Positions 7,430 to 64,000 of a stretch of DNA of 64,000 nucleotides are shown in pieces. Origin of the DNA: Stictocephala bisonia (Eukaryota; Arthropoda; Insecta; Hemiptera; Membracidae). The notes beneath the pieces were generated by a model. The model was given only the letters and a program-made list of their open reading frames with translations, was not told the DNA's origin and did not search any database. Position 1 is the first letter of the stretch. Each line of letters opens with the position of its first letter. Made by a program: the position numbers and the translations under genes. The stretch spans positions 248,001 through 312,000 of the forward strand of contig JAQJVL010000290.1 in the NCBI GenBank assembly GCA_035578905.1, read 5' to 3'.

Positions 7430-9165
7430 CCAATCAAAGTGAGATGTGTGATATTTCATCTTTTATCACGCTTCGCGTTATCAGTTATCAAAGTGAGATG
7501 TGTGATATTCCATCTTTTATCACGCTTCGCGTTATCAGTTATCAAAGTGAGATGTGTGATATTCCATCTTTTATCACGCTTCTCGTTATCAGTTATCAAA
7601 GTTAGATGTGTGATATTCCATCTTTTATCACGCTTCTCGTTATCAGTTATCAAAGTGAGATGTGTGATATTCCATCTTTTATCACGCTTCTCGTTATCAG
7701 TTATCAAAGTGAGATGTGCGATATTCCATCTTTTATCACGCTTCTCGTTATCAGTTATCAAAGTGAGATGTGCGATATTCCATCTTTTATCACGCTTCTC
7801 GTTATCAGTTATCAAAGTGAGATGTGCGATATTCCATCTTTTATCACGCTTCTCGTTATCAGATATCAAAGTGAGATGTGCGATATTCCATCTTTTATCA
7901 CGTTTCTCGTTATCAGTTATCAAAATGAGATGTGCGATATTCCATCTTTTATCACGCTTCTCGTTATCAGTTATCAAAGTGAGATGTGCGATATTCCATC
8001 TTTTATCACGCTTCTCGTTATCAGTTATCAAAGTGAGATGTGCGATATTCCATCTTTTATCACGCTTCTCGTTATCAGTTATCAAAGTGAGATGTGCGAT
8101 ATTCCATCTTTTATCACGCTTCTCGTTATCAGTTATCAAAGTGAGATGTGCGATATTCCATCTTTTATCACGCTTCTCGTTATCAGTTATCAAAGTGAGA
8201 TGTGCGATATTCCATCTTTTATCACGCTTCTCGTTATCAGTTATCAAAGTGAGATGTGCGATATTCCATCTTTTATCACGCTTCTCGTTATCAGTTATCA
8301 AAGTGAGATGTGCGATATTCCATCTTTTATCACGCTTCTCGTTATCAGTTATCAAAGTGAGATGTGCGATATTCCATCTTTTATCACGCTTCTCGTTATC
8401 AGTTATCAAAGTAAGATGTGCGATATTCCATCTTTTATCACGCTTCTGGTTATCAGTTATCAAAGTGAGATGTGTGATATTCCATCTTTTATCACGCTTC
8501 TCGTTATCAGTTATCAAAGTGAGATGTGCGATATTCCATCTTTTATCACGCTTCTCGTTATCAGTTATCAAAGTGAGATGTGCGATATTCCATCTTTTAT
8601 CACGCTTCTCGTTATCAGTTATCAAAGTGAGATGTGCGATATTCCATCTTTTATCACGCTTCTCGTTATCAGTTATCAAAGTGAGATGTGTGATATTCCA
8701 TCTTTTATCACGCTTCTCGTTATCAGTTATCAAAGTGAGATGTGTGATATTCCATCTTTTATCACGCTTCTCGTTATCAGTTATCAAAGTGAGATGTGTG
8801 ATATTCCATCTTTTATCACGCTTCTCGTTATCAGTTATCAAAGTGAGATGTGTGATATTCCATCTTTTATCACGCTTCTCGTTATCAGTTATCAAAGTGA
8901 GATGTGTGATATTCCATCTTTTATCACGCTTCTCGTTATCAGTTATCAATGTGAGATGTGTGATATTCCATCTTTTATCACGCTTCTCGTTATCAGTTAT
9001 CAAAGTGAGATGTGTGATATTCCATCTTTTATCACGCTTCTCGTTATCAGTTATCAAAGTGAGATGTGTGATATTCCATCTTTTATCACGCTTCTCGTTA
9101 TCAGTTATCAAAGTGAGATGTGTGATATTCCATCTTTTATCACGTTTCTCGTTATCAGTTATAAA
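7430..9165. repeat. 54-bp satellite array, 32 units
   Basis: Direct tandem repeat of a 54-bp unit, about 32 copies and nearly identical. Because 54 is divisible by 3 and the unit lacks stops in several frames, frames of over 500 codons stay open on both strands. These are not taken as genes: they have no start context or codon bias, and they decay at the array edges. Units differ mainly at one site, GTGTGAT or GTGCGAT. The order is 5 T-type, 14 C-type, 1 T, 3 C, 9 T, so the C variant spread inside the array. Each unit carries three TTATCA (TGATAA on the minus strand), which are GATA-factor-type motifs. Confidence 0.95.
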
Positions 9166-10360
9166 AATAACGTTGAAAGAACCAGACAGTTTTTTTATTA
9201 ATGCAATTAATTTGTTATCATTTAATGTTTGGATTGGAGATAAGTAAATAACGATAATTCAGTTTATCGATAATTTAAATCAAGCAGTATTTGGATTATC
9301 TCATATTTTGACGTTCCTCTATGAATATATAATTAATTTACTATCAACATCCGTTGTTTAATGATTTGTCAGTATCGTTTCATTTATTTACCTCTTTATT
9401 CAGCATCATTCAGTGATGAGTTCAAACGATGAGTTTACAACTCATTTCATTGAGTTGTAATGTTTAAGGAACTGCACTCGACACTAACAAATTACACTTA
9501 AGCTAAAGGTAGTCAGTAAGATGCTTGATCTTACCTATGTGAAAATTATTTATATTAATTTGATACTGTCTTACAAATTTCTTTAAATATGATTGATTAC
9601 ATAACTTGCATCATTTCGTAATTGCGACTCATAAAATGTATATTTTATTGAATACTGAGTAAAACCTACTGAAGAACTGTCTTAACATTAAAACTAAGAC
9701 TGAATTTCAGAAATGTAAAAGTATTCTTTGTTGGTACAATATGCTCGCCTAAAAATTATTTTCGTTCATTTATACTAAATGATCTCAAGTTAGGTTCATT
9801 TTGGTGAAAATAAAAGAAGGTTATTAAAAAGGAAAGAAAGCACAGTAAATTATATTTCTATTTAATCATTATTTTTATAATAAGATTTTATTAAGTAGAT
9901 GAGAATGTTGTTGTATGTTGAATAAGTTTAAGGATTTAATAATTTTAGAGGTAAGATGGTTGTTAAAAAATATTTAGTACTACTATTATATACTTCAAGT
10001 TTTGTAAACTTCAATCTAGCCAGACAGTTTTATGTTTATTTGATAGTATACAATTAAAATATATATCTGTCTGATTAAAAACCTAAGTAAAGCAAACAGA
10101 TATATTCGTCTTTTAAATTGTCTAAATAATTCATTTTAAGTTTAAATTTGTAGCTATCGTTGTATTTTCTCTAAATAGCTTATAATATTTTGTTTCATAT
10201 TTATATTGTTTCAAAGACTATAAAAAATGAGTTGAGATGAACATGAACAAAAAATGTATCATCCAGATTAGATTAGTGTTTAAAAGGGTTTTATTGTTTT
10301 ATTTTAAGAAATGTAAACATACTATTACAATTGAGAACGAGTTGATATTGGTTACTTAAA
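9166..10360. other. AT-rich non-coding stretch
   Basis: No gene or structured repeat seen. Confidence 0.5.
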
Positions 10361-34333: not shown

Positions 34334-35536
<1,203 letters not shown>

Positions 35537-35896: not shown

Positions 35897-36992
<1,096 letters not shown>

Positions 36993-40004: not shown

Positions 40005-42655
40005 ACTATAGTGAACATTCTGTAGTTACTGTAGTGAGTGTATAAAAACAAGTGAACAATCCGTAGTTGTTGTATAAAAACAAGTGAACAATCCGTAGTT
40101 AGTGTAGAAAAACAAGTGAACATTCCGTAGTTAGGGTAGTGAGTGTATAAAAACAAGTGAACATTCCGTATTTAATGTAGTTAGTGTATAAAAACAAGTG
40201 AACAATCCGTAGTTGTTGTATAAAAACAAGTGAACAATCCGTAGTTAGTATAGAAAAACAAGTGAACATTCCGTAGTTAGTGTAGTGAGTGTATAAAAAC
40301 AAGTGAACATTCCGTAGTTAATGTAGTGAGTGTATAAAAACAAGTGAACATTCCGTAGTTAGTGTAGTTAGTGTATGAAAACAAGTGAACAATCCGTAGT
40401 TGTTGTATAAAAACAAGTGAACAATCCGTAGTTAGTGTAGAAAAACAAGTGAACATTCCGTAGTAGTGTAGTGAGTGTATAAATACAAGTGAACATTCCG
40501 TAGTTAGTGTAGTGAGTGTATAAAAACAAGTGAACATTCCGTAGTTAGTGTAGTGAGTGTATAAAAACAAGTGAACATTCCGTAGTTAGTGTACAAAAAC
40601 AATTGAACAATCTGTAGTTAGTGTAGTGAGTGTATAAAAACAAGTGAACATTCCGTAGTTAGTGTAGTGAGTGTATAAAAACAAGTAAACATTCCGTAGT
40701 TAGTGTAGTGAGTGTATAAAAACAAGTGAACAATCCGTAGTTGTTGTATAAAAACAAGTGAACAATCCGTAGTTAGTGTAGAAAAACAAGTGAACATTCC
40801 GTAGTCAGTGTAGTGAATGTATAAAAACAAGTGAACAATCCGTAGTTGTTGTATAAAAACAAGTGAACAATCCGTAGTTAGTGTAGAAAAACAAGTGAAC
40901 ATTCCGTAGTTAGTGTAGTGAGTGTATAAAAACAAGTGAACATTCCGTAGTTAATGTAGTGAGTGTATAAAAACAAGTGAACATTCCGTAGTTAGTGTAG
41001 TTAGTGTATGAAAACAAGTGAACATTCCGTAGTTAGTGTAGTGAGTGTATAAAAACAAGTGAACATTCCGTAGTTAATGTAGTGAGTGTATAAAAACAAG
41101 TAAACAATCCGTAGTTAGTGTATAAATACAAATGAACATTCCGTAGTTAGTGTAGTGAGTGTATAAAAACAAGTGAACATTCCGTAGTTAATGTAGTGAG
41201 TGTATAAAAACAAGTGAACATTCCGTAGTTAGTGTAGTTAGTGTATGAAAACAAGTGAACAATCCGTAGTTGTTGTATAAAAACAAGTGAACAATCCGTA
41301 GTTAGTGTAGAAAAACAAGTGAACATTCCGTAGTAGTGTAGTGAGTGTATAAATACAAGTGAACATTCCGTAGTTAGTGTAGTGAGTGTATGAAAACAAG
41401 TGAACAATCCGTAGTTGTTGTATAAAAACAAGTGAACAATCCGTAGTTAGTGTAGAAAAACAAGTGAACATTCCGTAGTAGTGTAGTGAGTGTATACAAA
41501 CAAGTGAACATTCCGTAGTTAGTGTAGTGAGTGTATGAAAACAAGTGAACAATCCGTAGTTGTTGTATAAAAACAAGTGAACAATCCATAGTTAGTGTAG
41601 AAAAACAAGTGAACATTCCGTAGTAGTGTAGTGAGTGTATAAATACAAGTGAACATTCCGTAGTTAGTGTAGTGAGTGTATAAAAACAAGTGAACATTCC
41701 GTAGTTAGTGTAGTGAGTGTATAAAAACAAGTGAACATTCCGTAGTTAGTGTACAAAAAACAATTGAACATTCTGTAGTTAGTGTAGTGAGTGTATAAAA
41801 ACAAGTGAACATTCCGTAGTTAGTGTAGTGAGTGTATAAAAACAAGTGAACATTCCGTAGTTAGTGTAGTGAGTGTATAAAAACAAGTGAACATTCCGTA
41901 GTTAGTGTAGTGAGTGTATAAAAACAAGTGAACATTCCGTAGTTAGTGTAGTGAGTGTATAAAAACAAGTGAACATTCCGTAGTTAGTGTACAAAAACAA
42001 TTGAACATTCTGTAGTTAGTGTAGTGAGTGTATAAAAACAAGTGAACATTCCGTAGTTAGTGTACAAAAACAAGTGAACATTCCGTAGTAGTGTAGTGAG
42101 TGTATAAAAACAAGTGAACATTCCGTAGTAGTGTAGTGAGTGTATAAAAACAAGTGAACATTCCGTAGTTAGTGTAGTGAGTGTATAAAAACAAGTGAAC
42201 ATTCCGTAGTTAGTGTACAAAAACAAGTGAATATTCCGTAGTTAGTGTACAAAAACAAGTGAACATTCCGTAGTAGTGTAGTGAGTGTATAAAAACAAGT
42301 GAACATTCCGTAGTTAGTGTACAAAAACAAGTGAACATTCCGTAGTAGTGTAGTGAGTGTATAAAAACAAGTGAACATTCCGTAGTTAGTATAGTGAGTG
42401 TATAAAAACAAGTGAACAATCCGTAGTTAGTGTAGTGAGTGTATAAAAACAAGTGAACATTCCGTAGTAGTGTAGTGAGTGTATAAAAACAAGTGAACAT
42501 TCCGTAGTTAGTGTAGTGAGTGTATAAAAACAAGTGAACATTCCGTAGTAGTGTAGTGAGTGTATAAAAACAAGTGAACATTCCGTAGTTAGTGTAGTGA
42601 GTGTATAAAAACAAATGAATATTCCGTAGTTAGTGTAGTGAGTGTATGAACACAA
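40005..42655. repeat. 2.65-kb composite minisatellite
   Basis: Built from a 41-bp module (ACAAGTGAACATTCCGTAGT plus TAGTGTAGTGAGTGTATAAAA) and shorter versions that lack the TAGTGAG part or carry GTTGTTGTATAAAA and CAATCC. Modules alternate in blocks, giving a higher-order pattern. Minus-strand frames rich in Tyr/Thr/Phe are by-products. Confidence 0.95.
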
Positions 42656-49756: not shown

Positions 49757-51664
49757 CTACAACCCCCATGAATCCGCCGACAACCACTCCCTTAGTGCCG
49801 CAACAAACCGAGCTCGACTATCAATATTTCGAGTTGAAGGATCAAGTTTATTCCACAGTCTGCAGGCAGTGACAGTAAAAGATCTATTGTAATGTGCTGT
49901 TCGATGAGCTGGAATAGTTAACATTGAAGAACCCTGACGCGTGTCCCGATTACTTATGCTGAAGTTAAACACAAAATTTGAAGCTAAATAAGAAGGATTT
50001 TTGGATTGAAGAACATTGTACAGTAAAGATAAAATTTTGACCTTTCTGTACTCAAGTAACTTTAGTAAATTTAGCCGTCTGAAGTAAGGAGTGATATGTT
50101 CATCTCGACGAAGATTGAAAATATAACGTAGACAATAGTTCTGCGCTCGTTGAAGTTTATCAGAAAGATGGGTAGGCATGTCATTGATGACAATGTCGCA
50201 GTAGTCAAAGTGGGGAAATACAAGAGTTTTTACTAGCATAATCTTAATATCTAAAGGTAAACAGTTATAATATCTCTTAAGAGTGTGAATACCAGCAAAA
50301 ACCCTATTACATGTTAAAGATACATGATCAGACCATGTAAGTGTAGTATTCATAAGGAGTCCCAAGTTCTTAATTTTGTCACAGTAGTTAAGTGAATTAT
50401 TATCAATAGAGATACGGGGTACTGTATCAAGACCAATCTGTGCCATCAGTCTGTTATGTCCAATAATAATAGGTTGAGTCTTGTTGTTGTTTAGTCTTAA
50501 GCTGTGCCTGAACGCCCAGTCACCAATAGATTTAATGTCAGAATTCATTCTATTAACCCCTTCATTTAAGTCTGATACATCAACGTGAGAGTATATTTGT
50601 AAATCGTCAGCATAAAGGTGATATTTACAGTGGGAAATGCTGTTGGACAAGTCATTGATGTACAAAGTAAACAGTAGAGGTCCAAGTACAGAGCCCTGAG
50701 GGACACCTTTGGTTACACTTCCCCAATTAGAGTATTCGTTATTCACATGTACACGCTGACGCCTGCCAGTCAGATAGGACTCAAACCAGGAAATACTGTC
50801 AGACGAGAAACCAAGATGAGAAAGTTTGACTTTGAGCAGTGGATGATAGACACAATCAAACGCTTTAGAAAAATCAAACAGAGTGAGCAATGTCACTTGT
50901 CTGATGTCCATAGCTTTTCGAATATCCTCAGTGATATATAGAAGTGCAGTGGTGGTACTGTGATTTCTCCGAAAACCTGACTGAAACTTACCAAGAAGAT
51001 CATTACTAGAAAGATAATTACATACTTGTTGGTGAACAATCCTCTCAAGACATTTAGAGAGCGCAGGTAAGATACTGATTGGACGATAATCAGATGGAGA
51101 AGATGGAGAGGACGTCTTGGCGATTGGCCGAACAATCGCTGATTTCCAGGCAGATGGGAATATTGAGGTTGCAAGTGATTTGTTCAGGATTGTCGTGATA
51201 ACAGGTAAAACTGCGGGGATTATAACTTTTAATAACTTCATAGAAATGTTGTCTGTCCCAACCGCATTACTTTTAATCATCATAATGGATATATAGACCT
51301 CATTCTCATTTGTCATAGTTAAAGTAAAATATGAATCACGAGGAGTTGGAAGCTGAGATCTTAGATGATCTGAAAATCCAACAGCCCCAGTGTTATCAAC
51401 AGGGAGATTAATATAGTAAATATTAAGCTCATTAAGATTTACTGAGATGGGACTATCAGGTTTAATCCTGGACACCCCCAACTTCTTGATCATACGCCAG
51501 CGTTCAGTAGATGATTTATTTTCAGTGAAATATGTATATATGTACCTAGCTCTTGAATTTCGCATTTCTTGTTTAACTCTATTTCGTAGATGTTTATAGA
51601 CATTTCTATCAATGAGGTCCTTAGTCCTCTTAAATTTCCTATGGATAGAGTCACGCTGGGCCAT
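49757..51664 (-). CDS. LINE reverse transcriptase (ORF2, partial)
   Basis: A 635-codon open frame of a non-LTR retrotransposon polyprotein that copies element RNA at a nicked target. RT blocks in order: SDYRPISILPALSKCLE (191-207), FRRNHSTTTAL (231-241), the first catalytic Asp in TLFDFSKAFD (about 261-270), GVPQGSVLGPLLF (320-332) and catalytic YADD (351-354). Thumb and C-terminal parts follow (FDYCDIVIND, RAQNYCLRYIFNL, and CRLWNKLDPSTR near the end). The frame is open upstream of the first ATG as far as the insertion point at 51694, so that ATG is only the first available Met. The endonuclease is missing, so the protein is incomplete. The lack of stops indicates a fairly young insertion. 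Confidence 0.9.
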   Translation of the reverse strand: MAQRDSIHRKFKRTKDLIDRNVYKHLRNRVKQEMRNSRARYIYTYFTENKSSTERWRMIKKLGVSRIKPDSPISVNLNELNIYYINLPVDNTGAVGFSDHLRSQLPTPRDSYFTLTMTNENEVYISIMMIKSNAVGTDNISMKLLKVIIPAVLPVITTILNKSLATSIFPSAWKSAIVRPIAKTSSPSSPSDYRPISILPALSKCLERIVHQQVCNYLSSNDLLGKFQSGFRRNHSTTTALLYITEDIRKAMDIRQVTLLTLFDFSKAFDCVYHPLLKVKLSHLGFSSDSISWFESYLTGRRQRVHVNNEYSNWGSVTKGVPQGSVLGPLLFTLYINDLSNSISHCKYHLYADDLQIYSHVDVSDLNEGVNRMNSDIKSIGDWAFRHSLRLNNNKTQPIIIGHNRLMAQIGLDTVPRISIDNNSLNYCDKIKNLGLLMNTTLTWSDHVSLTCNRVFAGIHTLKRYYNCLPLDIKIMLVKTLVFPHFDYCDIVINDMPTHLSDKLQRAQNYCLRYIFNLRRDEHITPYFRRLNLLKLLEYRKVKILSLLYNVLQSKNPSYLASNFVFNFSISNRDTRQGSSMLTIPAHRTAHYNRSFTVTACRLWNKLDPSTRNIDSRARFVAALREWLSADSWGL

Positions 51665-52584: not shown

Positions 52585-52710
52585 TTGCCTGATCACATGG
52601 GCTTGCAAGCCTGTGCGTGAACTTTGTGCAACGAGTGAAATACCCACCGTTGGCTCAGTGGGGATTCGATCCTTGGTAATTGACCACTGAGTCACCACGC
52701 TGGCAATATT
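52585..52710 (-). mobile_element. tRNA-derived SINE head
   Basis: Minus strand: TGGTGACTCAGTGGTCAATT (A box) and GGATCGAATCCCC (B box), closer together than in a real tRNA. It is a SINE head with a shortened anticodon region. Confidence 0.6.
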
Positions 52711-52738
52711 CCGTAAGTATAAGGAAGACGAAGCTTAA

Positions 52739-53120
52739 ATTGGTTTTGATATACTATATCATTTAATCAAACACAATTCTAAACCAATATTTATTTCTAA
52801 ACTTTATTTTGCAGGCTTTCAATAGCTTTAATTAATCAACTTCTTTTACTGTAAAAGGTACAAGAACGGCCTGTTTTGAATTAAATTAATTTGTTGTTTG
52901 TTAAATCTATACAAAATTAATATAGAAAAGAACTGATAAACTTAGAGATATAAGAAATGTTATTTTAATATATTTGATTATAATTTCAAACTAATTTTTG
53001 TATTTAGTATTTAAGACGTGTCTAATGATGATAGCATTGCCATCGAAAGGCCTCACAAAATTAAGTTTTAACTATTGGTTTAGAATTGAATTTGATTAAA
53101 TGATACAGTATGAGTAGATA
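52739..53120 (+). mobile_element. Penelope-type terminal remnant with inverted ends
   Basis: 52739-52792 and 53068-53120 are inverted copies (CATTTAATCAAAC, ATTCTAAACCAATA). Next to the right copy are GAAAGGCCT and TATTGGTTTAGA, words also seen in the 10.4/11.9-kb Penelope termini. It lies immediately upstream of the polymerase element. Confidence 0.5.
53015..53060 (+). ncRNA. Hammerhead-ribozyme-like motif
   Basis: CTAATGA (53022-53028; consensus CTGATGA, one change), a GC-ATT-GCC stem II, and GAAA (53045-53048). GTG before and CAC after may form stem I. The arrangement fits Penelope-associated hammerheads; the G-to-A change would probably kill catalysis. Confidence 0.45.
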
Positions 53121-53161
53121 AAAAGCTCAGGAGCCAGACCCACTTTTACCTTTGGACTTTC

Positions 53162-53225
53162 AAGATGGCGGCGGTCACGTGACCGGATCCAAGATGGCGG
53201 CCGGAACCGGATCCAAGATGGCGGC
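53162..53225 (+). promoter_or_regulatory. Three YY1/Pho sites and a palindromic E-box
   Basis: AAGATGGCGGC occurs at 53162, 53191 and 53215, an exact match to the YY1 consensus AANATGGCGNC. Between the first two lies GGTCACGTGACC (53173-53184), a perfect 12-bp palindrome with the CACGTG E-box core. About 1.3 kb upstream of the polymerase start. Confidence 0.6.
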
Positions 53226-53230
53226 GCCCA

Positions 53231-53290
53231 TTTCCCGCCAAATTTTCTAACCTCACTTTTCCTAACCTCAAATTCCCATTTCCCGCCAAA
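53231..53290 (-). promoter_or_regulatory. Two perfect E2F-type sites
   Basis: TTTCCCGCCAAA at 53231-53242 and 53279-53290, i.e. TTTGGCGGGAAA on the minus strand, the textbook E2F consensus. They sit in a 48-bp direct repeat with CTAACCTCA blocks. E2F sites drive S-phase replication genes, which fits a DNA polymerase downstream. Confidence 0.6.
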
Positions 53291-53360
53291 TTTCCTAACC
53301 TCACTTTTCCTAACCTCAAATTTCCCTCAAATTCCCAAATTTCCCTCCAAATTCCCACAT

Positions 53361-53795
53361 CATACTATATGAAATTCACTGTTAACCTTGTTATTCTATA
53401 TAAAATGCACTTTTTTGTCCAATATGGCGTCTTTTTCCATATTATACTATATAAAATGCACTTTTTTGTCCAATATGGCGTCTTTTTCCATATTATACTA
53501 TATAAAATGCACTTTTTTTGTCCAATATGGCGTCTTTTTCCATGTTATACTATATAAAATGCACTTTTTTTGTCCAATATGGCGTCTTTTTCCATGTTAT
53601 ACTATATAAAATTCACTTTTTTGTCCAATATGGCGTCTTTTTCCATGTTATACTATATAAAATTCACTTTTTTGTCCAATATGGCGTCTTTTTCCATGAT
53701 AAACTATATAAACTTCACTTTTTTGTCCAATATGATGCCTTTTTCCATGTTAGACTATATAAAATGAACTTTTTTGTCCAATATGACGTCTTTCC
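53361..53795 (+). repeat. 51-bp tandem array in the polymerase promoter region
   Basis: About eight units of 51-52 bp, each with a TATA-like CTATATAAAATG and, 22-24 bp on, CCAATATGGCGTC, which fits the YY1 consensus. Six units keep AATATGGCG exactly and the last two vary. The TATA-like word recurs singly at 54056, 54084 and 54124. Reading frames across it are spurious. Confidence 0.85.
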
Positions 53796-54339
53796 CTCCT
53801 CAAAATTCCCTCCCAAAATTCCTCATCCAATATGGCGACCTTTCCCTTCGGGTACTTCCGGCGACCGTCGACTACCTTCGTACACGTCGTCTGCTGGTCG
53901 GGCGCGCATGCGCCCCTTGTTACTCTACTCTATGTGCTCGATTCGATCGTAGCGCACCTGGTGGCAAAACTTAGCACATCCTTTCGGAAACATGGCGCCT
54001 TCGGAAGGGAAGTCCCAGGTGGGAAAATTCCCTCCCTCAAATTCCCTCGGTATACTATACAAAATGCACTCTTCCCATCTCATACTATATAAAATGCAAA
54101 AGATGGTGGCCATTTACATATGTACTATATAAAATGCTTTCGTGTACTTCCGACGACTACCTTCGTACGCTCTTCACCCCTCGGCTACAGGTCTGGCGCG
54201 CATGCGCACCCATATGCTACGCTCTGATTGGATAGTCCCTTCTTCTCATTTTGAAAAACAGTACTACACAGGATGACGTAATCGGAGTTTCAAGTCTGGA
54301 CAGGCGCGTGACCTAATTGACCCCTACCTCATCCATCCC

Positions 54340-54404
54340 TATATAAACGACCAACACATTCAATCCGTCTCACTTCTGCTCTTGCGCTCGTACTGATCAG
54401 ACGT
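54340..54404 (+). promoter_or_regulatory. TATA-Inr-DPE core promoter of the polymerase gene
   Basis: TATATAAA lies at 54340-54347 and an initiator-like TCACTT at 54370-54375. Taking its A (54372) as +1, TATAAA falls at -30 and AGACGT (54399-54404), a full match to the DPE consensus RGWYVT, falls at +28 to +33. The Inr has one mismatch to TCAKTY. The leader to the ATG at 54531 would be 159 nt. Confidence 0.7.
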
Positions 54405-54530
54405 GTCTTCACTTTGCTCCTACTCACGTAATTCTTGTAATTTTGGACGTCGTTCTCTGTACGGTATTTCAAAGTAATAATCAATATTTACCACCCTTTG
54501 TTTTTCTTCCGATTTAATTTTGTTTAAAAG

Positions 54531-57500
54531 ATGGAATCCTTTTCCATATACGACAACCTCGTCACCATTTCCCGTAGGTTCGATACATCCGATCCTGATC
54601 TCCTTACCGTTCTAACGGAACATAAAAACAAAATTATGTCTGAAATAAATAACCACCTAAACAGGCTCGGGGGAGTTAAATGGTATATCGCAGTCCAGAT
54701 TAAATTTTCCAAAACAATAAACAACGAAGAAATCACAACAACACCCTTCTTTCACGGCAAAACCCGTCCTTTGCTACCTTCTGATTCTCTAGATATTCAG
54801 TATTCCGAGGCTACAGACAAAATTTTAGAAAGCGTGGCTAAGTGGGTAAGTCAAGGTAGTGGGTGGGTAATAGAAAACGTTTTACGCCTAGATCTGTTCA
54901 TTGTTAAATATCAACCTTTGTACGCCTCTTCCTATATACCTACCCCAAAACAAATTTCTCACCCCACTAAAGGAATTATAAATATTAAGAACGACAATCA
55001 AAAATGTTTCCTGTACTCTGTACTTGCCCATTTGTACCCGGACCGACATAGGCGAATAAGCTATTACAAAAAACTCGAAAACAAATTAAACATGTCCGGA
55101 ATTGAGTATCCTGTCAAAATTTCCGATCTTGATAAATTTGAAAAATTGAACCCTGCTTTATCTGTAAATGTCTTTGGATTTGAAAAAGACGAAATTTATC
55201 CTTTACGTATAACAAAAGAAAAATTTAGAGTTCATCACATCAACTTGTTACTGTTGACTACTGACACGACCACTCACTACTGCCTAATTACCAACTTATC
55301 CCGACTTTTAGCTCACTTGACTAAATATAATAAAGCATATTACTACTGTGACTACTGCCTACACAGATTTTGGACTAAAGACTTACTTACTAACCACTTA
55401 CCTTTGTGTTCACCACACGGTGCACAAAAGACCAGACTTCCTACTGATGATGAAAAATACATGTCTTTCAAAAATTACACACTAACTCACAAAGTCCCAT
55501 TCACAATATACTGTGACTTTGAGTCCTTTGTTGTACCTATCCCTACTACACTCAATAATCCATCTACTTCACATACTACCAACACTGCCCATCACGTACC
55601 TTCTGGCTTTTGCTACGTAATTATTGACAGTGACGGTAAACCCATAAAGCAACCTAAAGTCTATAGCGGCCCCGACGTTGTAGATACTTTTCTAAATTGT
55701 TTGATTGATGAGTCTAAAGAGCTCTTACCCATTATCAAAAAGAATATTCCGATTAAAATGTCTCCACAAGACAAAATCATTTTCCAAAACGCTACCACCT
55801 GTCACCTTTGTCAAAAACCTTTGGACGAAGACAAAGTGGCCAACCATAATCACCTAACGGGGCAGTTCTTGGGACCCACCCACAATTCATGCAATCTAAA
55901 TTATAAAGTCCCCGACCACATCCCAGTCTTTTTCCATAACCTCAGAGGTTATGACTGCCATCATCTTATTCAAGGACTCGGCAAATTCAAAAAAGAAAAA
56001 CTGGCATGTATCGCTACTACTAGCGAACGGTACATTTCAGTCACCCTTGAATCTTTAAGATTTTTGGACTCGCTTCAATTCTTAAACGCTTCTTTGGACA
56101 CACTCGTGTCCAACTTAGTTTCTGACGACGGGGCATCAAAATTCAAAATTTTAGGGCAGTGTATGACCAACACAGACTTACTACTACGAAAAGGTGTCTT
56201 TCCCTACACTTACATGACAGACGAATCAAAATTTAACGATACTGAACTGCCTCCCAAGGAGACGTTCTACAACGACTTAACCAAAACACATATTTCAGAC
56301 GACGACTACACACACGCACAGACTGTGTGGTCAACCTTTGGTATGACCACTTTGAAACAATATCACGACCTTTACTTACTCACAGACGTACTATTACTTG
56401 CCGACGTGTTTGAAAATTTTAGAACTACCAGTATGACTTACTACGGTATTGACCCGTGTAACGACTACTCTGCCCCCGGACTAGCATGGAATTCCATGCT
56501 GAAAATGACAGACGTAAAACTCGAACTACTCACTGACATTGACCAGCACCTCTTTGTCGAGTCTGGGATCCGGGGTGGTGTCTCCATGATACCCAACCGG
56601 TACGCCCAGGCCAACAACCCTTACTTACCCAACTTTGACAACACAAAACCAACTAATTACCTACTTTATCTAGATTGTAATAATTTATATGGTGCCAGTC
56701 TATCTGATAGACTCCCAGAGTCTGGCTTTAACTGGATCGACCCGCAAGACATTGACATTACAAAAGTACCCGACGACTCCGACACCGGTTACATTTTAGA
56801 AGTTGACCTACACTACCCTGACCACTTACATGACTTACATTCCGACTTTCCACTAGCCCCCGAACATAAAGTAGTTACAGACGATATGCTCTCCCCCTAC
56901 TGTAAGGACCTACTTCATGAACTCAACTATAAACCTCCAAAGACTGAAAAACTACTAACTACCCTGTGTGACAAAACAAAATACGTTGTACACTACAGGA
57001 CTCTAAAACTATACCTACAACTGGGACTTGTACTGACCAAAATTCACAGAGCTCTAAGTTTTAAACAGTCTGCCTGGTTAGCCCCATTTATTAATTTTAA
57101 TACAGAGAAAAGAAAATGTGCCAAAAATAACTTTGAAAAAGATTTTTTTAAATTAATGAATAATGCGACATATGGAAAGAGTTTGGAAAATGTAAGATCT
57201 AGGATAGACTTTAAACTTGTAAATAACGAAAAACAATTGGTCAAATGGACAGCTAGTCCCAGGCTTAAAACATTTTTCGCATACAATAAAGATATCGCGG
57301 GATTGGCTTTAAAAAAACAAACAATTTTCCTAAACAGACCCATTTATGTTGGATTTACAGTATTGGAAATTTCAAAATCAATAATGTACAACTTTCACTA
57401 CAACTGGGCAATTGCAAAGTATGGGAAAAACATAAAACTTTGTATGACTGACACAGACTCACTATTCTACAACGTATATACTCCCGACGTTTACACAGAT

Positions 57501-57992
57501 ATGAAAAAAGAATTACACCTTTTTGACACGTCCGACTATCCACCTAGCCACCCATGCTACAGTGTAGAAAACAAAAAAGCGTTAGGAAAATTTAAAGACG
57601 AACTAAACTCAAATCCGGCTAGGGAAATAATTGGCTTGAGAGCGAAATGCTACTCCGTTCTAAATTCTAATCTAGAGGAAAAGAAGGTAGCCAAAGGCGT
57701 CCCCCGAGTCGCGATAAAAAAACAATTAAAACACGAAATGTACAAAGATTGTCTTTTAAATCATTCGTTAAAAACAACATCCACTCTAAACATTCGTAGT
57801 GAAAAACATAAAATTTACACACAAAATATTTCAAAATTATCACTTTCCCCTTTTGACGATAAAAGATACATCTTGGATAATGGAATTGATACACTAGCAT
57901 ACGGACACCATTTAATTAGTAAAAAACGAACTTTAGAACACGATCATGATTCCATTAATAAAAAACTAAAACTCACTGGAATGAGATTGTAA
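54531..57992 (+). CDS. polB: Family B protein-primed-type DNA polymerase (Polinton/adintovirus-like)
   Basis: An intact 1153-residue single-exon replicative DNA polymerase with 3'-5' exonuclease. Exo I is YCDFES (D329, E331), Exo II is HNLRGYD (N470, D475) and Exo III is YLLTD (Y615, D619). Polymerase motif A is DCNNLYG (D715), motif B is KLMNNATYG (874-882), motif C is TDTDS (D974, D976) and the KxY motif is KCY (1039-1041). Before Exo I is a CxxC...HxxxC finger (C273, C276, H289, C293). Between Exo I and II is a second metal-type cluster, C424/C427 ... NHNHLTG ... C454. The N-terminal ~300 residues include KNDNQKCF (C159) and H249/N255, which could be a cysteine-protease-like triad. Length and motifs fit protein-primed polymerases of Polintons, adintoviruses and bidnaviruses. 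The start is the first in-frame ATG after a good promoter. All catalytic residues are present. No partner genes are visible, so self-transfer is unproven. Confidence 0.95.
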   Translation: MESFSIYDNLVTISRRFDTSDPDLLTVLTEHKNKIMSEINNHLNRLGGVKWYIAVQIKFSKTINNEEITTTPFFHGKTRPLLPSDSLDIQYSEATDKILESVAKWVSQGSGWVIENVLRLDLFIVKYQPLYASSYIPTPKQISHPTKGIINIKNDNQKCFLYSVLAHLYPDRHRRISYYKKLENKLNMSGIEYPVKISDLDKFEKLNPALSVNVFGFEKDEIYPLRITKEKFRVHHINLLLLTTDTTTHYCLITNLSRLLAHLTKYNKAYYYCDYCLHRFWTKDLLTNHLPLCSPHGAQKTRLPTDDEKYMSFKNYTLTHKVPFTIYCDFESFVVPIPTTLNNPSTSHTTNTAHHVPSGFCYVIIDSDGKPIKQPKVYSGPDVVDTFLNCLIDESKELLPIIKKNIPIKMSPQDKIIFQNATTCHLCQKPLDEDKVANHNHLTGQFLGPTHNSCNLNYKVPDHIPVFFHNLRGYDCHHLIQGLGKFKKEKLACIATTSERYISVTLESLRFLDSLQFLNASLDTLVSNLVSDDGASKFKILGQCMTNTDLLLRKGVFPYTYMTDESKFNDTELPPKETFYNDLTKTHISDDDYTHAQTVWSTFGMTTLKQYHDLYLLTDVLLLADVFENFRTTSMTYYGIDPCNDYSAPGLAWNSMLKMTDVKLELLTDIDQHLFVESGIRGGVSMIPNRYAQANNPYLPNFDNTKPTNYLLYLDCNNLYGASLSDRLPESGFNWIDPQDIDITKVPDDSDTGYILEVDLHYPDHLHDLHSDFPLAPEHKVVTDDMLSPYCKDLLHELNYKPPKTEKLLTTLCDKTKYVVHYRTLKLYLQLGLVLTKIHRALSFKQSAWLAPFINFNTEKRKCAKNNFEKDFFKLMNNATYGKSLENVRSRIDFKLVNNEKQLVKWTASPRLKTFFAYNKDIAGLALKKQTIFLNRPIYVGFTVLEISKSIMYNFHYNWAIAKYGKNIKLCMTDTDSLFYNVYTPDVYTDMKKELHLFDTSDYPPSHPCYSVENKKALGKFKDELNSNPAREIIGLRAKCYSVLNSNLEEKKVAKGVPRVAIKKQLKHEMYKDCLLNHSLKTTSTLNIRSEKHKIYTQNISKLSLSPFDDKRYILDNGIDTLAYGHHLISKKRTLEHDHDSINKKLKLTGMRL

Positions 57993-58114
57993 CCCATGGT
58001 TACTAACATGTCCGTAGAAACCCAATTTACGGCATTGGATGGGCTCAACCCGACCGTAGTGCAATGTAAAAGCCTCGTACTGGGCGGACCTTCTTCTTGA
58101 TTACGGTAACTCCT

Positions 58115-58130
58115 ACGCCAGGTAAGTAAT
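58115..58130 (+). promoter_or_regulatory. Consensus splice donor after the polymerase stop
   Basis: CAG|GTAAGT at about 58119-58127; a possible acceptor TTTCTATAG lies near 58271. Either a 3'-UTR intron or part of an alternative transcript; inference only. Confidence 0.3.
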
Positions 58131-58561
58131 GTTAAGTTAGTTTTAAGTAAACTCTTTTACCGTCAACCTTTAAAAAACAATCTGTAAAGTAAATTCTGTT
58201 ATAATATGAACACTTTTGTGAGTTTACATAACTACAATTTATTAACGGATATCTCCAGCTCTGTGTGAATTTCTATAGAATACCGTACCATCGAGGTGAG
58301 GGCGGCCCAAATTTAATAAAAAATCGCCCGACTGTTCTCTAAGGCAGTTTTAAAACGTGTAAGACCTGAGGCGGTCCTGCAACTTGGGGCTGGGCTAATC
58401 CCCGTAAGACCTTGAGTCGCAGTCCGGGCCCTCGTAAGGTACGTGTATGATTGAATGTTACACTCTATGGCTGGACAGTATCCGTAGGTCCCGTGTGTGA
58501 GGGAGAGTAACCTACAAAAAAGAAAAAAACACAAAAACCTACTGTAAAAAAACAGAATCAA

Positions 58562-58590
58562 AAAATAAAACAAATTTATAAATAAAAACC
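58562..58590 (+). terminator. Poly(A) signals of the polymerase transcript
   Basis: AATAAA occurs twice (about 58564 and 58581) some 580 nt after the stop codon; the same pair is mirrored in the other arm. Confidence 0.4.
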
Positions 58591-58661
58591 CCTTTGTAAG
58601 TCTGTACGTCACATTGAAAGGCTTCTCTAAGTAAAGTGATGTCTTTACTTACAGAGGGACC

Positions 58662-58668
<7 letters not shown>

Positions 58669-58706
<38 letters not shown>
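58669..58706 (+). repeat. Poly(A) tract in arm 1
   Basis: About 38 A. The mirror tract (poly-T at about 60779-60795) is much shorter, accounting for most of the length difference between the arms. Confidence 0.85.
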
Positions 58707-58712
<6 letters not shown>

Positions 58713-59358
58713 AAAAAATAAAAAAATTATAAAAAAACAATAACTAAATAATACTGAGAGGTAGCATTTTGTTGGTTGGCTACCACCGTAGTGAGCGAGG
58801 TTGGGGCTCATTACACTAAAATACCCGTGGGGGATACTAGTCCTATATCGGGCGCGTCCCATGGGAATTGGGCAATGCCCTTCAGTTTTGCCTTCAGCTT
58901 ACTTGAGGGTAGTGAGGAATTAAATACTCACCGTGAAAAAAAAACTGGTTAAATCAAAAACATTAATAAAATCTGCGAGAAAGATCATGGTATAGTACTG
59001 AATCAGGAAGTGATCTTAGTAACATATGGTAAAACTTTCTATAAAAAGAGTAAATTCCATCCAAAAGTAAGAAAAAAATCAAAGATACATACAAATTTCA
59101 GAAAAAGAGTCATTTTACATAAAAAATGTGTTGAAAAATTTTTCAAATCAAGGAAGAACTACCAACATAGTACTCTCCAAACCCCTTAAAATTTAGTTAA
59201 AATGTCAATAAATAGGGTTATTTGTGTACAAAATATGTTATAATTCCCTAAAAGCATTAAAATTCAGTGTCATAACAATGATGTTTGTTCTAAACATTTA
59301 AAAACCTTTAAAATTATCTAATAGACTCTTTATAAACTTAGTTTGTGCTCAAAACAAC

Positions 59359-59790
59359 ACACAAAAGACCAAACACAAACTCTACATATAAGACTCTTGG
59401 TTGACCACCCACCTACTCAACATACAACAACTCTGATAGATCATCCACCTAACCATTACATAAAACCTTTGATAGACCACCAACACACATGAACAACCTA
59501 CCTACGTAACATATAACACTCTTGACTTACCACACACCTACTCAACACACAAAAGACCAACCACACACTCTACATATAAGACTCTTGGTTGGTCGCCCAC
59601 CTACTCAACATACAACACCTCTGATACACCATTCCCTTGAACATTAAATAAAACCTGTGATATTCCACTCAATCACCAAACACACATGACTCTTAATAGA
59701 CCAATCCACCTACCTCTGCACACACGATTCCTTAGGACACACCCTACACCCACCACTCATCCTACAGACAAAACTCCTAGAGAACTACCC
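59359..59790 (+). repeat. Imperfect ~94-bp tandem repeat in the palindrome centre
   Basis: ACACAAAAGACC is followed by CTCTACATATAAGACTCTTG and CCCACCTACTCAACATACAA. The whole block recurs 188 bp later (59547), with half-unit copies between. It is present on one side of the centre only. Confidence 0.75.
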
Positions 59791-60121
59791 ATCCACCATA
59801 AAAACACTATTTCTTCATATAATCATGTTTTAAAAAAAAACATTATTACACTGTAAGATAGGTTTAATATAGCTAAAGACCAAAAGTGTTACCTAAAATT
59901 CTGTTTTCTCTAGAAATATGAGAAAAAGTTAGGTTAAAAACAATGAACATAGAAAAAGTTAGGTTAGTAAACATCAGAAAAGTAAGTCTAGCAATCAACC
60001 GAAAGGTTGATTGCTATCCTTACTTTTCCGAAAAGTTGTTAAAATAAACATACACAAAAAATGTCCCATTTTTTGAGTTTGTTAATTTTAAATGAACTTT
60101 TCGGATGTTTGCTAACCTAAC
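59366..60121. other. Palindrome centre (756 bp between arms)
   Basis: Holds the one-sided tandem repeats, the hairpin at 59977 and a continuation of the symmetry. AGTTAGGTTAGTAAACATC near 59957 is the inverted match of 60104-60122 with one change. The original symmetry point is therefore near 60.0 kb, and about 590 bp were inserted or expanded on the left. Confidence 0.75.
59977..60028. repeat. 24-bp-stem hairpin with GAAA loop at the palindrome centre
   Basis: 59977-60000 pairs with 60005-60028 with two adjacent mismatches; loop GAAA (60001-60004). It sits close to the true symmetry point of the palindrome, the place expected for a hairpin telomere or a dimer junction. Confidence 0.8.
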
Positions 60122-63100
60122 TTTGTGTGTTGTTTTGAGCACAAACTAAGTTTATAAAGAGTCTATTAGATAATTTTAAAGGTTTTTAAATGTTTAGAAC
60201 AAACATCATTGTTATGACACTGAATTTTAATGCTTTTAGGGAATTATAACATATTTTGTACACAAATAACCCTATTTATTGACATTTTAACTAAATTTTA
60301 AGGGGTTTGGAGAGTACTATGTTGGTAGTTCTTCCTTGATTTGAAAAATTTTTCAACACATTTTTTATGTAAAATGACTCTTTTTCTGAAATTTGTATGT
60401 ATCTTTGATTTTTTTCTTACTTTTGGATGGAATTTACTCTTTTTATAGAAAGTTTTACCATATGTTACTAAGATCACTTCCTGATTCAGTACTATACCAT
60501 GATCTTTCTCGCAGATTTTATTAATGTTTTTGATTTAACCAGTTTTTTTTCACGGTGAGTATTTAATTCCTCACTACCCTCAAGTAAGCTGAAGGCAAAA
60601 CTGAAGGGCATTGCCCAATTCCCATGGGACGCGCCCGATAGAGGACTGGTATCCCCCACGGGTATTTTAGTGTAATGAGCCCCAACCTCGCTCACTACGG
60701 TGGTAGCCAACCAACAAAATGCTACCTCTCAGTATTATTTAGTTATTCTTTTTTTATAATTTTTTTATTTTTTTTTGTATTTTTTTTTTTTTTTTGGGTC
60801 CCTCTGTAAGTAAAGACATCACTTTACTTAGAGAAGTCTTTCAATGTGACGTACAGACTTACAAAGGGGTTTTTATTTATAAATTTGTTTTTATTTTTTG
60901 ATTCTGTTTTTTTACAGTAGGTTTTTGTGTTTATTTCTTTTTTGTAGGTTACTCTCCCTCACACACGGGACCTACGGATACTGTCCAGCCATAGAGTGTA
61001 ACATTCAATCATACACGTACCTTACGAGGGCCCGGACTGCGACTCAAGGTCTTACGGGGATTAGCCCAGCCCCAAGTTGCAGGACCGCCTCAGGTCTTAC
61101 ACGTTTTAAAGCTGCCTTAGAGAACAGTCGGGCGATTTTTTATTAAATTTGGGCCGCCCTCACCTCGATGGTACGGTATTCTATAGAAATTCACACAGAG
61201 CTGGAGATATCCGTTAATAAATGGTAGTTATGTAAACTCACAAAAGTGTTCATATTATAACAGAATTTACTTTACAGATTGTTTTTTAAAGGTTGACGGT
61301 AAAAGAGTTTACTTAAAACTAACTTAACATTACTTACCTGGCGTAGGAGTTACCGTAATCAAGAAGAAGGTCCGCCCAGTACGAGGCTTTTACATTGCAC
61401 TACGGTCGGGTTGAGCCCATCCAATGCCGTAAATTGGGTTTCTACGGACATGTTAGTAACCATGGGTTACAATCTCATTCCAGTGAGTTTTAGTTTTTTA
61501 TTAATGGAATCATGATCGTGTTCTAAAGTTCGTTTTTTACTAATTAAATGGTGTCCGTATGCTAGTGTATCAATTCCATTATCCAAGATGTATCTTTTAT
61601 CGTCAAAAGGGGAAAGTGATAATTTTGAAATATTTTGTGTGTAAATTTTATGTTTTTCACTACGAATGTTTAGAGTGGATGTTGTTTTTAACGAATGATT
61701 TAAAAGACAATCTTTGTACATTTCGTGTTTTAATTGTTTTTTTATCGCGACTCGGGGGACGCCTTTGGCTACCTTCTTTTCCTCTAGATTAGAATTTAGA
61801 ACGGAGTAGCATTTCGCTCTCAAGCCAATTATTTCCCTAGCCGGATTTGAGTTTAGTTCGTCTTTAAATTTTCCTAACGCTTTTTTGTTTTCTACACTGT
61901 AGCATGGGTGGCTAGGTGGATAGTCGGACGTGTCAAAAAGGTGTAATTCTTTTTTCATATCTGTGTAAACGTCGGGAGTATATACGTTGTAGAATAGTGA
62001 GTCTGTGTCAGTCATACAAAGTTTTATGTTTTTCCCATACTTTGCAATTGCCCAGTTGTAGTGAAAGTTGTACATTATTGATTTTGAAATTTCCAATACT
62101 GTAAATCCAACATAAATGGGTCTGTTTAGGAAAATTGTTTGTTTTTTTAAAGCCAATCCCGCGATATCTTTATTGTATGCGAAAAATGTTTTAAGCCTGG
62201 GACTAGCTGTCCATTTGACCAATTGTTTTTCGTTATTTACAAGTTTAAAGTCTATCCTAGATCTTACATTTTCCAAACTCTTTCCATATGTCGCATTATT
62301 CATTAATTTAAAAAATCTTTTTCAAAGTTATTTTTGGCACATTTTCTTTTCTCTGTATTAAAATTAATAAATGGGGCTAACCAGGCAGACTGTTTAAAAC
62401 TTAGAGCTCTGTGAATTTTGGTCAGTACAAGTCCCAGTTGTAGGTATAGTTTTAGAGTCCTGTAGTGTACAACGTATTTTGTTTTGTCACACAGGGTAGT
62501 TAGTAATTTTTCAGTCTTTGGAGGTTTATAGTTGAGTTCATGAAGTAGGTCCTTACAGTAGGGGGAGAGCATATCGTCTGTAACTACTTTATGTTCGGGG
62601 GCAAGTGGAAAGTCGGAATGTAAGTCATGTAAGTGGTCAGGGTAGTGTAGGTCAACTTCTAAAATGTAACCGGTGTCGGAGTCGTCGGGTACTTTTGTAA
62701 TGTCAATGTCTTGCGGGTCGATCCAGTTAAAGCCAGACTCTGGGAGTCTATCAGATAGACTGGCACCATATAAATTATTACAATCTAGATAAAGTAGGTA
62801 ATTAGTTGGTTTTGTGTTGTCAAAGTTGGGTAAGTAAGGGTTGTTGGCCTGGGCGTACCGGTTGGGTATCATGGAGACACCACCCCGGATCCCAGACTCG
62901 ACAAAGAGGTGCTGGTCAATGTCAGTGAGTAGTTCGAGTTTTACGTCTGTCATTTTCAGCATGGAATTCCATGCTAGTCCGGGGGCAGAGTAGACGTTAC
63001 ACGGGTCAATACCGTAGTAAGTAATACTGGTAGTTCTAAAATTTTCAAACACGTCGGCAAGTAATAGTACGTCTGTGAGTAAGTAAAGGTCGTGATATTG

Positions 63101-64000
63101 TTTCAAAGTGGTCATACCAAAGGTTGACCACACAGTCTGTGCGTGTGTGTAGTCGTCGTCTGAAATATGTGTTTTGGTTAAGTCGTTGTAGAACGTCTCC
63201 TTGGGAGGCAGTTCAGTATCGTTAAATTTTGATTCGTCTGTCATGTAAGTGTAGGGAAAGACACCTTTTCGTAGTAGTAAGTCTGTGTTGGTCATACACT
63301 GCCCTAAAATTTTGAATTTTGATGCCCCGTCGTCAGAAACTAAGTTGGACACGAGTGTGTCCAAAGAAGCGTTTAAGAATTGAAGCGAGTCCAAAAATCT
63401 TAAAGATTCAAGGGTGACTGAAATGTACCGTTCGCTAGTAGTAGCGATACATGCCAGTTTTTCTTTTTTGAATTTGCCGAGTCCTTGAATAAGATGATGG
63501 CAGTCATAACCTCTGAGGTTATGGAAAAAGACTGGGATGTGGTCGGGGACTTTATAATTTAGATTGCATGAATTGTGGGTGGGTCCCAAGAACTGCCCCG
63601 TTAGGTGATTATGGTTGGCCACTTTGTCTTCGTCCAAAGGTTTTTGACAAAGGTGACAGGTGGTAGCGTTTTGGAAAATGATTTTGTCTTGTGGAGACAT
63701 TTTAATCGGAATATTCTTTTTGATAATGGGTAAGAGCTCTTTAGACTCATCAATCAAACAATTTAGAAAAGTATCTACAACGTCGGGGCCGCTATAGACT
63801 TTAGGTTGCTTTATGGGTTTACCGTCACTGTCAATAATTACGTAGCAAAAGCCAGAAGGTACGTGATGGGCAGTGTTGGTAGTATGTGAAGTAGATGGAT
63901 TATTGAGTGTAGTAGGGATAGGTACAACAAAGGACTCAAAGTCACAGTATATTGTGAATGGGACTTTGTGAGTTAGTGTGTAATTTTTGAAAGACATGTA
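60122..64000 (-). repeat. Giant palindrome, arm 2 (runs off the window)
   Basis: Near-identical inverted copy of 55458-59365. Differences seen include the shorter T tract, a one-base deletion at 62310-62315 and scattered substitutions (for example near 61224, 61111 and 60645). Confidence 0.95.
61467..64000 (-). pseudogene. polB: Second polymerase copy, frameshifted and partial
   Basis: Inverted duplicate of the gene at 54531, covering codon 310 to the stop; the N-terminal part lies beyond the window. An A run at 62310-62315 is one base shorter than its counterpart in arm 1. This shifts the frame just before polymerase motif B and separates Exo I-III and motif A (62303-63997) from motifs B, C and KxY (61467-62303). 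Two amino-acid changes were noticed near Exo III (Met to Ile, Asp to Val). If the deletion is real this copy cannot make a full polymerase; homopolymer miscalling is an alternative. Confidence 0.9.

What the first reader, a model, noticed from the sequence alone, without database searches (positions are those of the whole stretch)
53120..64000. DNA polymerase gene carried in a >3.9-kb-armed palindrome: candidate undescribed replicon
A complete protein-primed-type PolB gene, its 3' flank and an A-rich tract are mirrored almost perfectly around about 60.0 kb, and the partner arm continues past the window. Polinton terminal inverted repeats are normally far shorter and do not contain polB. A tail-to-tail dimer is what replication through a hairpin or protein-capped linear end would leave. 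Substitutions between the arms argue against a simple fold-back read artefact but do not exclude one. No integrase, capsid or ATPase gene is visible, so this may be a minimal or derived element.
Basis: partly seen in the sequence, partly recalled or inferred. Interest (0 to 1): 0.9.

Follow-up and report, generated by a model that had tools for sequence, protein, structure and literature searches.

The report
Inverted duplication of a Polinton polymerase
An insect-like genome segment carries two near-identical, mirror-image copies of a virus-type DNA polymerase gene joined through a DNA stretch that can fold into a three-armed hairpin; the simplest reading is a repair or assembly accident beside a known kind of mobile-element gene, not a new self-replicating element.

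Summary
The palindrome is in the sequence: 55458-59365 and 60122-64000 (window end) are inverted copies with 11 substitutions in 3878 aligned bases and four homopolymer-length differences. An asymmetric 756-bp spacer interrupts it; the centre is near 59.74 kb. The left polB is intact (1153 aa); the right copy shows residues 310-1153 and is frameshifted. The protein has the TP-vOTU-EXO-PALM layout reported for Polinton polymerases, and some relatives sit beside Polinton-type genes. So the polymerase is not new. The locus is not shown to be a replicon: no integrase, capsid, ATPase or protease gene and no terminal repeats were found. The spacer ends, at the right arm, in a 170-nt three-way hairpin (-58 kcal/mol, z -16, lowest of 4256 windows). 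A diverged tandem duplication starts inside the arm and continues into the spacer, which suggests that the left side is ancestral. Best reading: a break at the hairpin base, fold-back and copying, as in known inverted duplications. A haplotype misjoin and a hairpin-ended replicon dimer remain open. None of 22 requests to search the host genome was answered, so symmetry past 64000 is untested.

The parts
54531..57992 (+). intact polB ORF, 1153 aa: TP (about 6-129), vOTU-like (about 136-258, Cys159/His249), Cys/His cluster 273-293, exonuclease with a weak EndoVII match at 414-456, palm to about 1106
   Evidence: (EndoVII E 0.0058, below the curated cut-off)
55458..59365 (+). left arm of the inverted repeat (visible part)
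60122..64000 (-). right arm, running off the window
61467..64000 (-). right polB copy, residues 310-1153 visible, two ORFs separated by a homopolymer frameshift
58663..58737 (+). A-rich tract, 28 nt shorter in the right arm
59366..60121 (.). asymmetric spacer between the arms
59355..59730 (+). tandem duplication of about 188 bp (end of the second unit uncertain), units 85% identical over 173 ungapped columns, first 11 bp inside the left arm
59955..60124 (.). three-way (T/Y-shaped) hairpin: outer stem 59955-59983 with 60096-60124, two inner hairpins
53389..53793 (+). array of 51-bp units with TATATAAA and ANATGGCG words
53112..54530 (+). putative promoter region: 11 of the window's 14 ANATGGCG words, 2 of 2 E2F-like, 2 of 2 NRF1-like, 1 of 1 CRE-like
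   Evidence: factor names recalled
52751..53111 (.). MITE-like inverted repeat left of the polB unit

Best explanation
A Polinton/Maverick/adintovirus-type protein-primed DNA polymerase gene with a promoter-like region upstream lies in an insect (probably hemipteran) chromosome without the other genes of such elements. Recently, a break at the base of a hairpin-forming sequence about 750 bp downstream of the later arm end was repaired by fold-back: the free 3' end (..CCTAACTTT) paired with a short complement (AAA at 59363-59365) and copied the polB unit backwards. That gives an inverted duplication with an unduplicated spacer that ends in the hairpin. Shown: the arms, the spacer, the hairpin ending at the junction, the predicted domain layout of the polymerase. 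Inferred: the break, the fold-back step, the 3-nt microhomology (it assumes that the three bases which extend the hairpin's stem into the right arm were there before), the direction (left ancestral, right derived), the recency and the host.
Confidence: 0.5

Rival explanations
1. Assembly artefact: the second haplotype (or another copy) of one polB locus was joined in reverse at the hairpin, which assemblers handle badly.
For: 0.28% divergence and homopolymer-only indels fit two haplotypes plus sequencing error; a strong hairpin lies at the join.
Against: A plain read fold-back would give no 756-bp asymmetric spacer. No reads are at hand to test a misjoin.
Confidence: 0.2
2. Two separate tail-to-tail insertions of the same element, or of truncated copies, 756 bp apart.
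For: Both arms end at the same base; the tip reads TTTGTGTGTTG, and GTGTGTGT tips are reported for a Polinton and a bidnavirus (PMC4061559, passage).
Against: Tandem unit 2, outside the arm, repeats the arm's last 11 bp and what follows, so 59365 is unlikely to be a free terminus; no terminal inverted repeats were found.
Confidence: 0.12
3. Tail-to-tail replication dimer of a PolB replicon whose telomere is the three-way hairpin; the right arm then lost about 592 bp next to the hairpin.
For: The hairpin has the A-B-C layout of parvovirus telomeres (recalled) and sits between the arms; deletions that make palindromes asymmetric are plausible (recalled); a TTT microhomology fits such a deletion.
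Against: Needs a second event; no three-way hairpin was found at the other end or in the 3' flanks (111-1500 nt) of the 14 of 18 related loci examined; the polymerase appears to carry a terminal-protein domain, i.e. priming at protein-capped ends; MITE-like inverted repeats occur elsewhere in this window.
Confidence: 0.08
4. A Polinton-like element whose terminal inverted repeats have expanded to contain polB.
For: polB lies inside both arms.
Against: Only a 756-bp spacer lies between the arms; it holds no ORF of 80 aa or more and no hit to other element genes.
Confidence: 0.04

Closest known systems
Polinton/Maverick/adintovirus pPolB
   Same: TP-vOTU-EXO-PALM layout with vOTU Cys/His kept; weak EndoVII match at E 0.0058, as reported for insect Maverick polB at 0.02 and 0.32; 1215 homologues, 120 listed; in 4 of 9 examined loci a related polB lies beside an integrase, PLA2, C5 protease or DJR capsid gene
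   Different: Here no other element gene and no terminal repeat was found, and polB lies in an inverted duplication
Bidnavirus PolB
   Same: The top three BFVD fold matches are proteins of viruses named densovirus (19-23% identity), followed by adintovirus PolB (18-19%); PolB-bearing viruses labelled densovirus are grouped with bidnaviruses (PMC8363768, passage)
   Different: Bidnavirus vOTU is reported inactivated (PMC11071308, passage); here Cys159/His249 are kept; five small ORFs of the polB region gave no Pfam match
Fold-back inverted duplication
   Same: unduplicated spacer and inverted copy of one side; short inverted homology possible at the junction
   Different: Extent and ancestral state unknown; a strong hairpin lies at the junction
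AAV-type terminal hairpin
   Same: outer stem plus two inner arms, 170 nt; comparison recalled
   Different: About 70% AT, found once in the window, next to the right arm only, and the polymerase is of the protein-primed kind

Membership tests
[quoted passage not shown]
Polinton/Maverick element (the locus) | RVE integrase, DJR capsid, ATPase and protease genes nearby | tested here: not met
   0 of 79 hits outside polB; queries are divergent and the right flank is cut off
Polinton/Maverick element (the locus) | terminal inverted repeats bounding the element | tested here: not met
   best inverted match between 52601-54530 and 57993-60121 is 22 bp, E 0.11
Polinton/Maverick element (the locus) | target site duplication | not tested
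   no element ends could be fixed, so no flanks could be compared
Bidnaviridae | inactivated vOTU in PolB | tested here: not met
   Cys159/His249 kept; the defining state is from PMC11071308, passage
Bidnaviridae | parvovirus-type capsid and SF3 helicase genes | tested here: inconclusive
   five small ORFs of the polB region gave no Pfam match; no dedicated search made
Fold-back inverted duplication | unduplicated spacer between inverted copies | tested here: met
   756-bp spacer without symmetry to the arms
Fold-back inverted duplication | short inverted homology at the junction | tested here: inconclusive
   AAA/TTT only, inferred from the hairpin stem reaching 3 nt into the right arm
Fold-back inverted duplication | un-rearranged allele or relative without the inverted copy | not testable with these tools
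   host genome search did not complete (22 tries)
Hairpin-ended (parvovirus-like) replicon | terminal hairpins at both ends | tested here: not met
   one three-way hairpin only; the left side has a MITE-like inverted repeat, z -6.9
MITE (the three-way hairpin) | many dispersed copies with target duplication | not testable with these tools
   single copy in 64 kb; the genome could not be searched

The most novel reading that the evidence does not exclude
A PolB-encoding replicon with a parvovirus-like three-way terminal hairpin, caught as an integrated tail-to-tail dimer: the sort of parvovirus-polinton intermediate that the proposed origin of bidnaviruses calls for.
Probability: 0.06. Interest if true: 0.9.

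Novelty: new member of a known kind. Interest (0 to 1): 0.35.

Why it matters
It shows how a solitary Polinton-type polymerase gene can look like a new replicon once it is caught in an inverted duplication, and it offers a junction with little arm divergence (0.28%) and a strong hairpin at the breakpoint, useful for studying how insect genomes make inverted duplications. If the hairpin proved to be an element terminus, it would bear directly on how bidnaviruses arose.

Tried and rejected
Host genome: the genome search 'own' with one unchanged query was tried 22 times and did not complete, so copy number, monomers and the continuation past 64000 are unknown.

IMG/VR with the single protein: no relative; with the alignment: one locus. 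Hairpin stem pattern in IMG/VR, exact: none. PDB by sequence: none at E up to 1. Pfam DNA_pol_B_2 did not match the window protein at E up to 1 but matched 7 of 25 alignment members. PHROGs: three weak hits, two of them endonuclease VII.

Tree of 134 polymerase rows (quick method): the window pairs with P0001 (SH-aLRT 93, under the 95 mark); no starred set holds it, and none of the 14 rows from the fetched loci lies in its eight-row group. So 'Polinton type' rests on domain layout and family, not on a close relative with known neighbours.

Neighbour genes were looked for in 28 ORFs (one of them L001's polB itself) from 9 of 18 loci. Polinton-type genes above the curated cut-off in 4 loci: L001 PLA2; L005 integrase and PLA2 (one ORF); L014 C5 protease; L016 DJR capsid. 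PLA2 is not a universal Polinton gene; it is reported for insect Mavericks (PMC5803895, passages). Below the cut-off: A32-type ATPase in L014 and L018, C5 protease in L005. None in L003 (a BRO-N protein instead), L006, L012, L017. The other 9 loci were not examined this way.

Hairpins: of the 14 of 18 loci whose 3' flank (111-1500 nt, many cut by the contig end) was folded in 170-nt windows, the best z was -4.2 (L017). That scan would miss longer structures: L004 has a 76-bp perfect inverted repeat after polB, which folds as a long stem over 380 nt.

Literature: searches listed 8 to 25 papers each; in those listings I saw no title or abstract start that describes a Polinton polB inside a long palindrome. 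One hit for 'tail-to-tail' (PMC12721341, passage) concerns gene orientation. Only open PMC papers were searched, and the adintovirus, nematode polinton and original Polinton papers were not held. Searches were on fold-back and on hairpins.

Full report
What is there. The window is eukaryotic DNA with LINE-type reverse transcriptase ORFs (49757-51664 and 35897-36823, minus strand) and long satellites. Of the 120 listed homologues of the first ORF, the four that name an organism are hemipteran (Graphocephala twice, Diaphorina) or thrips (Megalurothrips). Named polB relatives are animal-wide (corals, molluscs, a spider); the best-scoring named ones are of the planthopper Lycorma. The host is therefore probably a hemipteran insect; this is inference. 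Two copies of a polB unit face each other. The arms, 55458-59365 and 60122-64000, align over 3878 bases with 11 substitutions (4 transitions, 7 transversions) and 31 gap columns, 28 of them in the A-rich tract and the other three single bases in homopolymers. Four substitutions lie in 2535 coding bases and 7 in 1373 non-coding bases (Fisher p 0.06); of the four coding ones two change an amino acid. The repeat is far beyond chance (blastn E 0.0). It is not centred at 60.0 kb and is not gapless: a 756-bp spacer with no symmetry to the arms separates them.

What surrounds it. Upstream, 53112-54530 holds 11 of the window's 14 ANATGGCG words (expected 0.2 in shuffles of the segment), both E2F-like, both NRF1-like and the only CRE-like word, and 11 of the window's 21 forward-strand TATATAAA words. 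Factor names are recalled. Much of the count comes from the 51-bp array and is not independent. The region looks like a strong promoter. No other Polinton gene was found, and no terminal inverted repeat.

The junction. The spacer's first part is C-rich (156 C, 33 G in 465 bases) and holds a tandem duplication of about 188 bp whose two units are 85% identical over 173 ungapped columns. Unit 1 begins at 59355, 11 bp inside the arm, so arm and spacer appear to have been joined when that duplication arose, long before the arms split. The left side is then the older arrangement, and 59365 is unlikely to be an element end. The spacer's last part, 59955-60124, folds as one outer stem with two inner hairpins: -58.1 kcal/mol against -13.2 +/- 2.8 for shuffles, and the lowest of 4256 windows of that length in 64 kb. 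Its outer stem shares its last three bases with the right arm. MITE-like inverted repeats occur elsewhere in the window, so the hairpin may itself be such an element; a single copy in the window leaves this open.

How it most likely arose. A break at the base of the hairpin, fold-back with AAA/TTT pairing, and copying of the left unit would give this order: arm, unduplicated spacer ending in the hairpin, inverted arm. Human fold-back duplications have spacers of 766 bp and more, slightly longer than this one, and 2-8 bp microhomology in 13 of 21 sequenced junctions (PMC3907307, passages read); a yeast study shows the pathway (PMC10622511, passages read). The break, the microhomology and the fold-back are inferred. 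A misjoin of two haplotypes is the strongest rival, because arm divergence is in the range that allelic variation could give. A hairpin-ended replicon dimer needs an extra 592-bp deletion, has no matching hairpin at the other end, and sits badly with a protein-primed polymerase, but the evidence does not exclude it.

Verdict. Observation partly confirmed; polymerase ordinary for its kind; 'new replicon' not supported; the three-way hairpin at the junction is the part worth a second look once the host genome can be searched.

Noticed in passing
53112-54530: Dense cluster of ANATGGCG, E2F-like, NRF1-like, CRE-like and TATA words plus a 51-bp repeat array directly upstream of polB: looks like a virus-style promoter.
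   Followed up: partly
59955-60124: Most stable 170-nt fold of the window, a three-way hairpin; its stem sequence occurs nowhere else in the window with up to 3 mismatches.
   Followed up: partly
L002-L018: 17 contigs in bacterial MAG records encode Polinton-type polymerases, probably mis-binned viral or eukaryotic DNA.
   Followed up: partly
P0001 (alignment): Nearest homologue (63-64%) carries an extra block that looks like a repeat of its own vOTU segment, as if that domain were duplicated in frame.
   Followed up: no
L004:4288-4654: A 76-bp perfect inverted repeat plus a 21-bp one downstream of polB; may be a terminus, a hairpin or a chimera.
   Followed up: no
7433-9166, 34334-35533, 40010-42655: Long satellites: 54 bp x 32 (98% matches), 1.2 kb of GA, and 41 bp x 70.
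   Followed up: no
52610-52700: Short stretch with a tRNA B-box-like word (recalled), possibly a SINE, beside a MITE-like inverted repeat 52751-53111.
   Followed up: no
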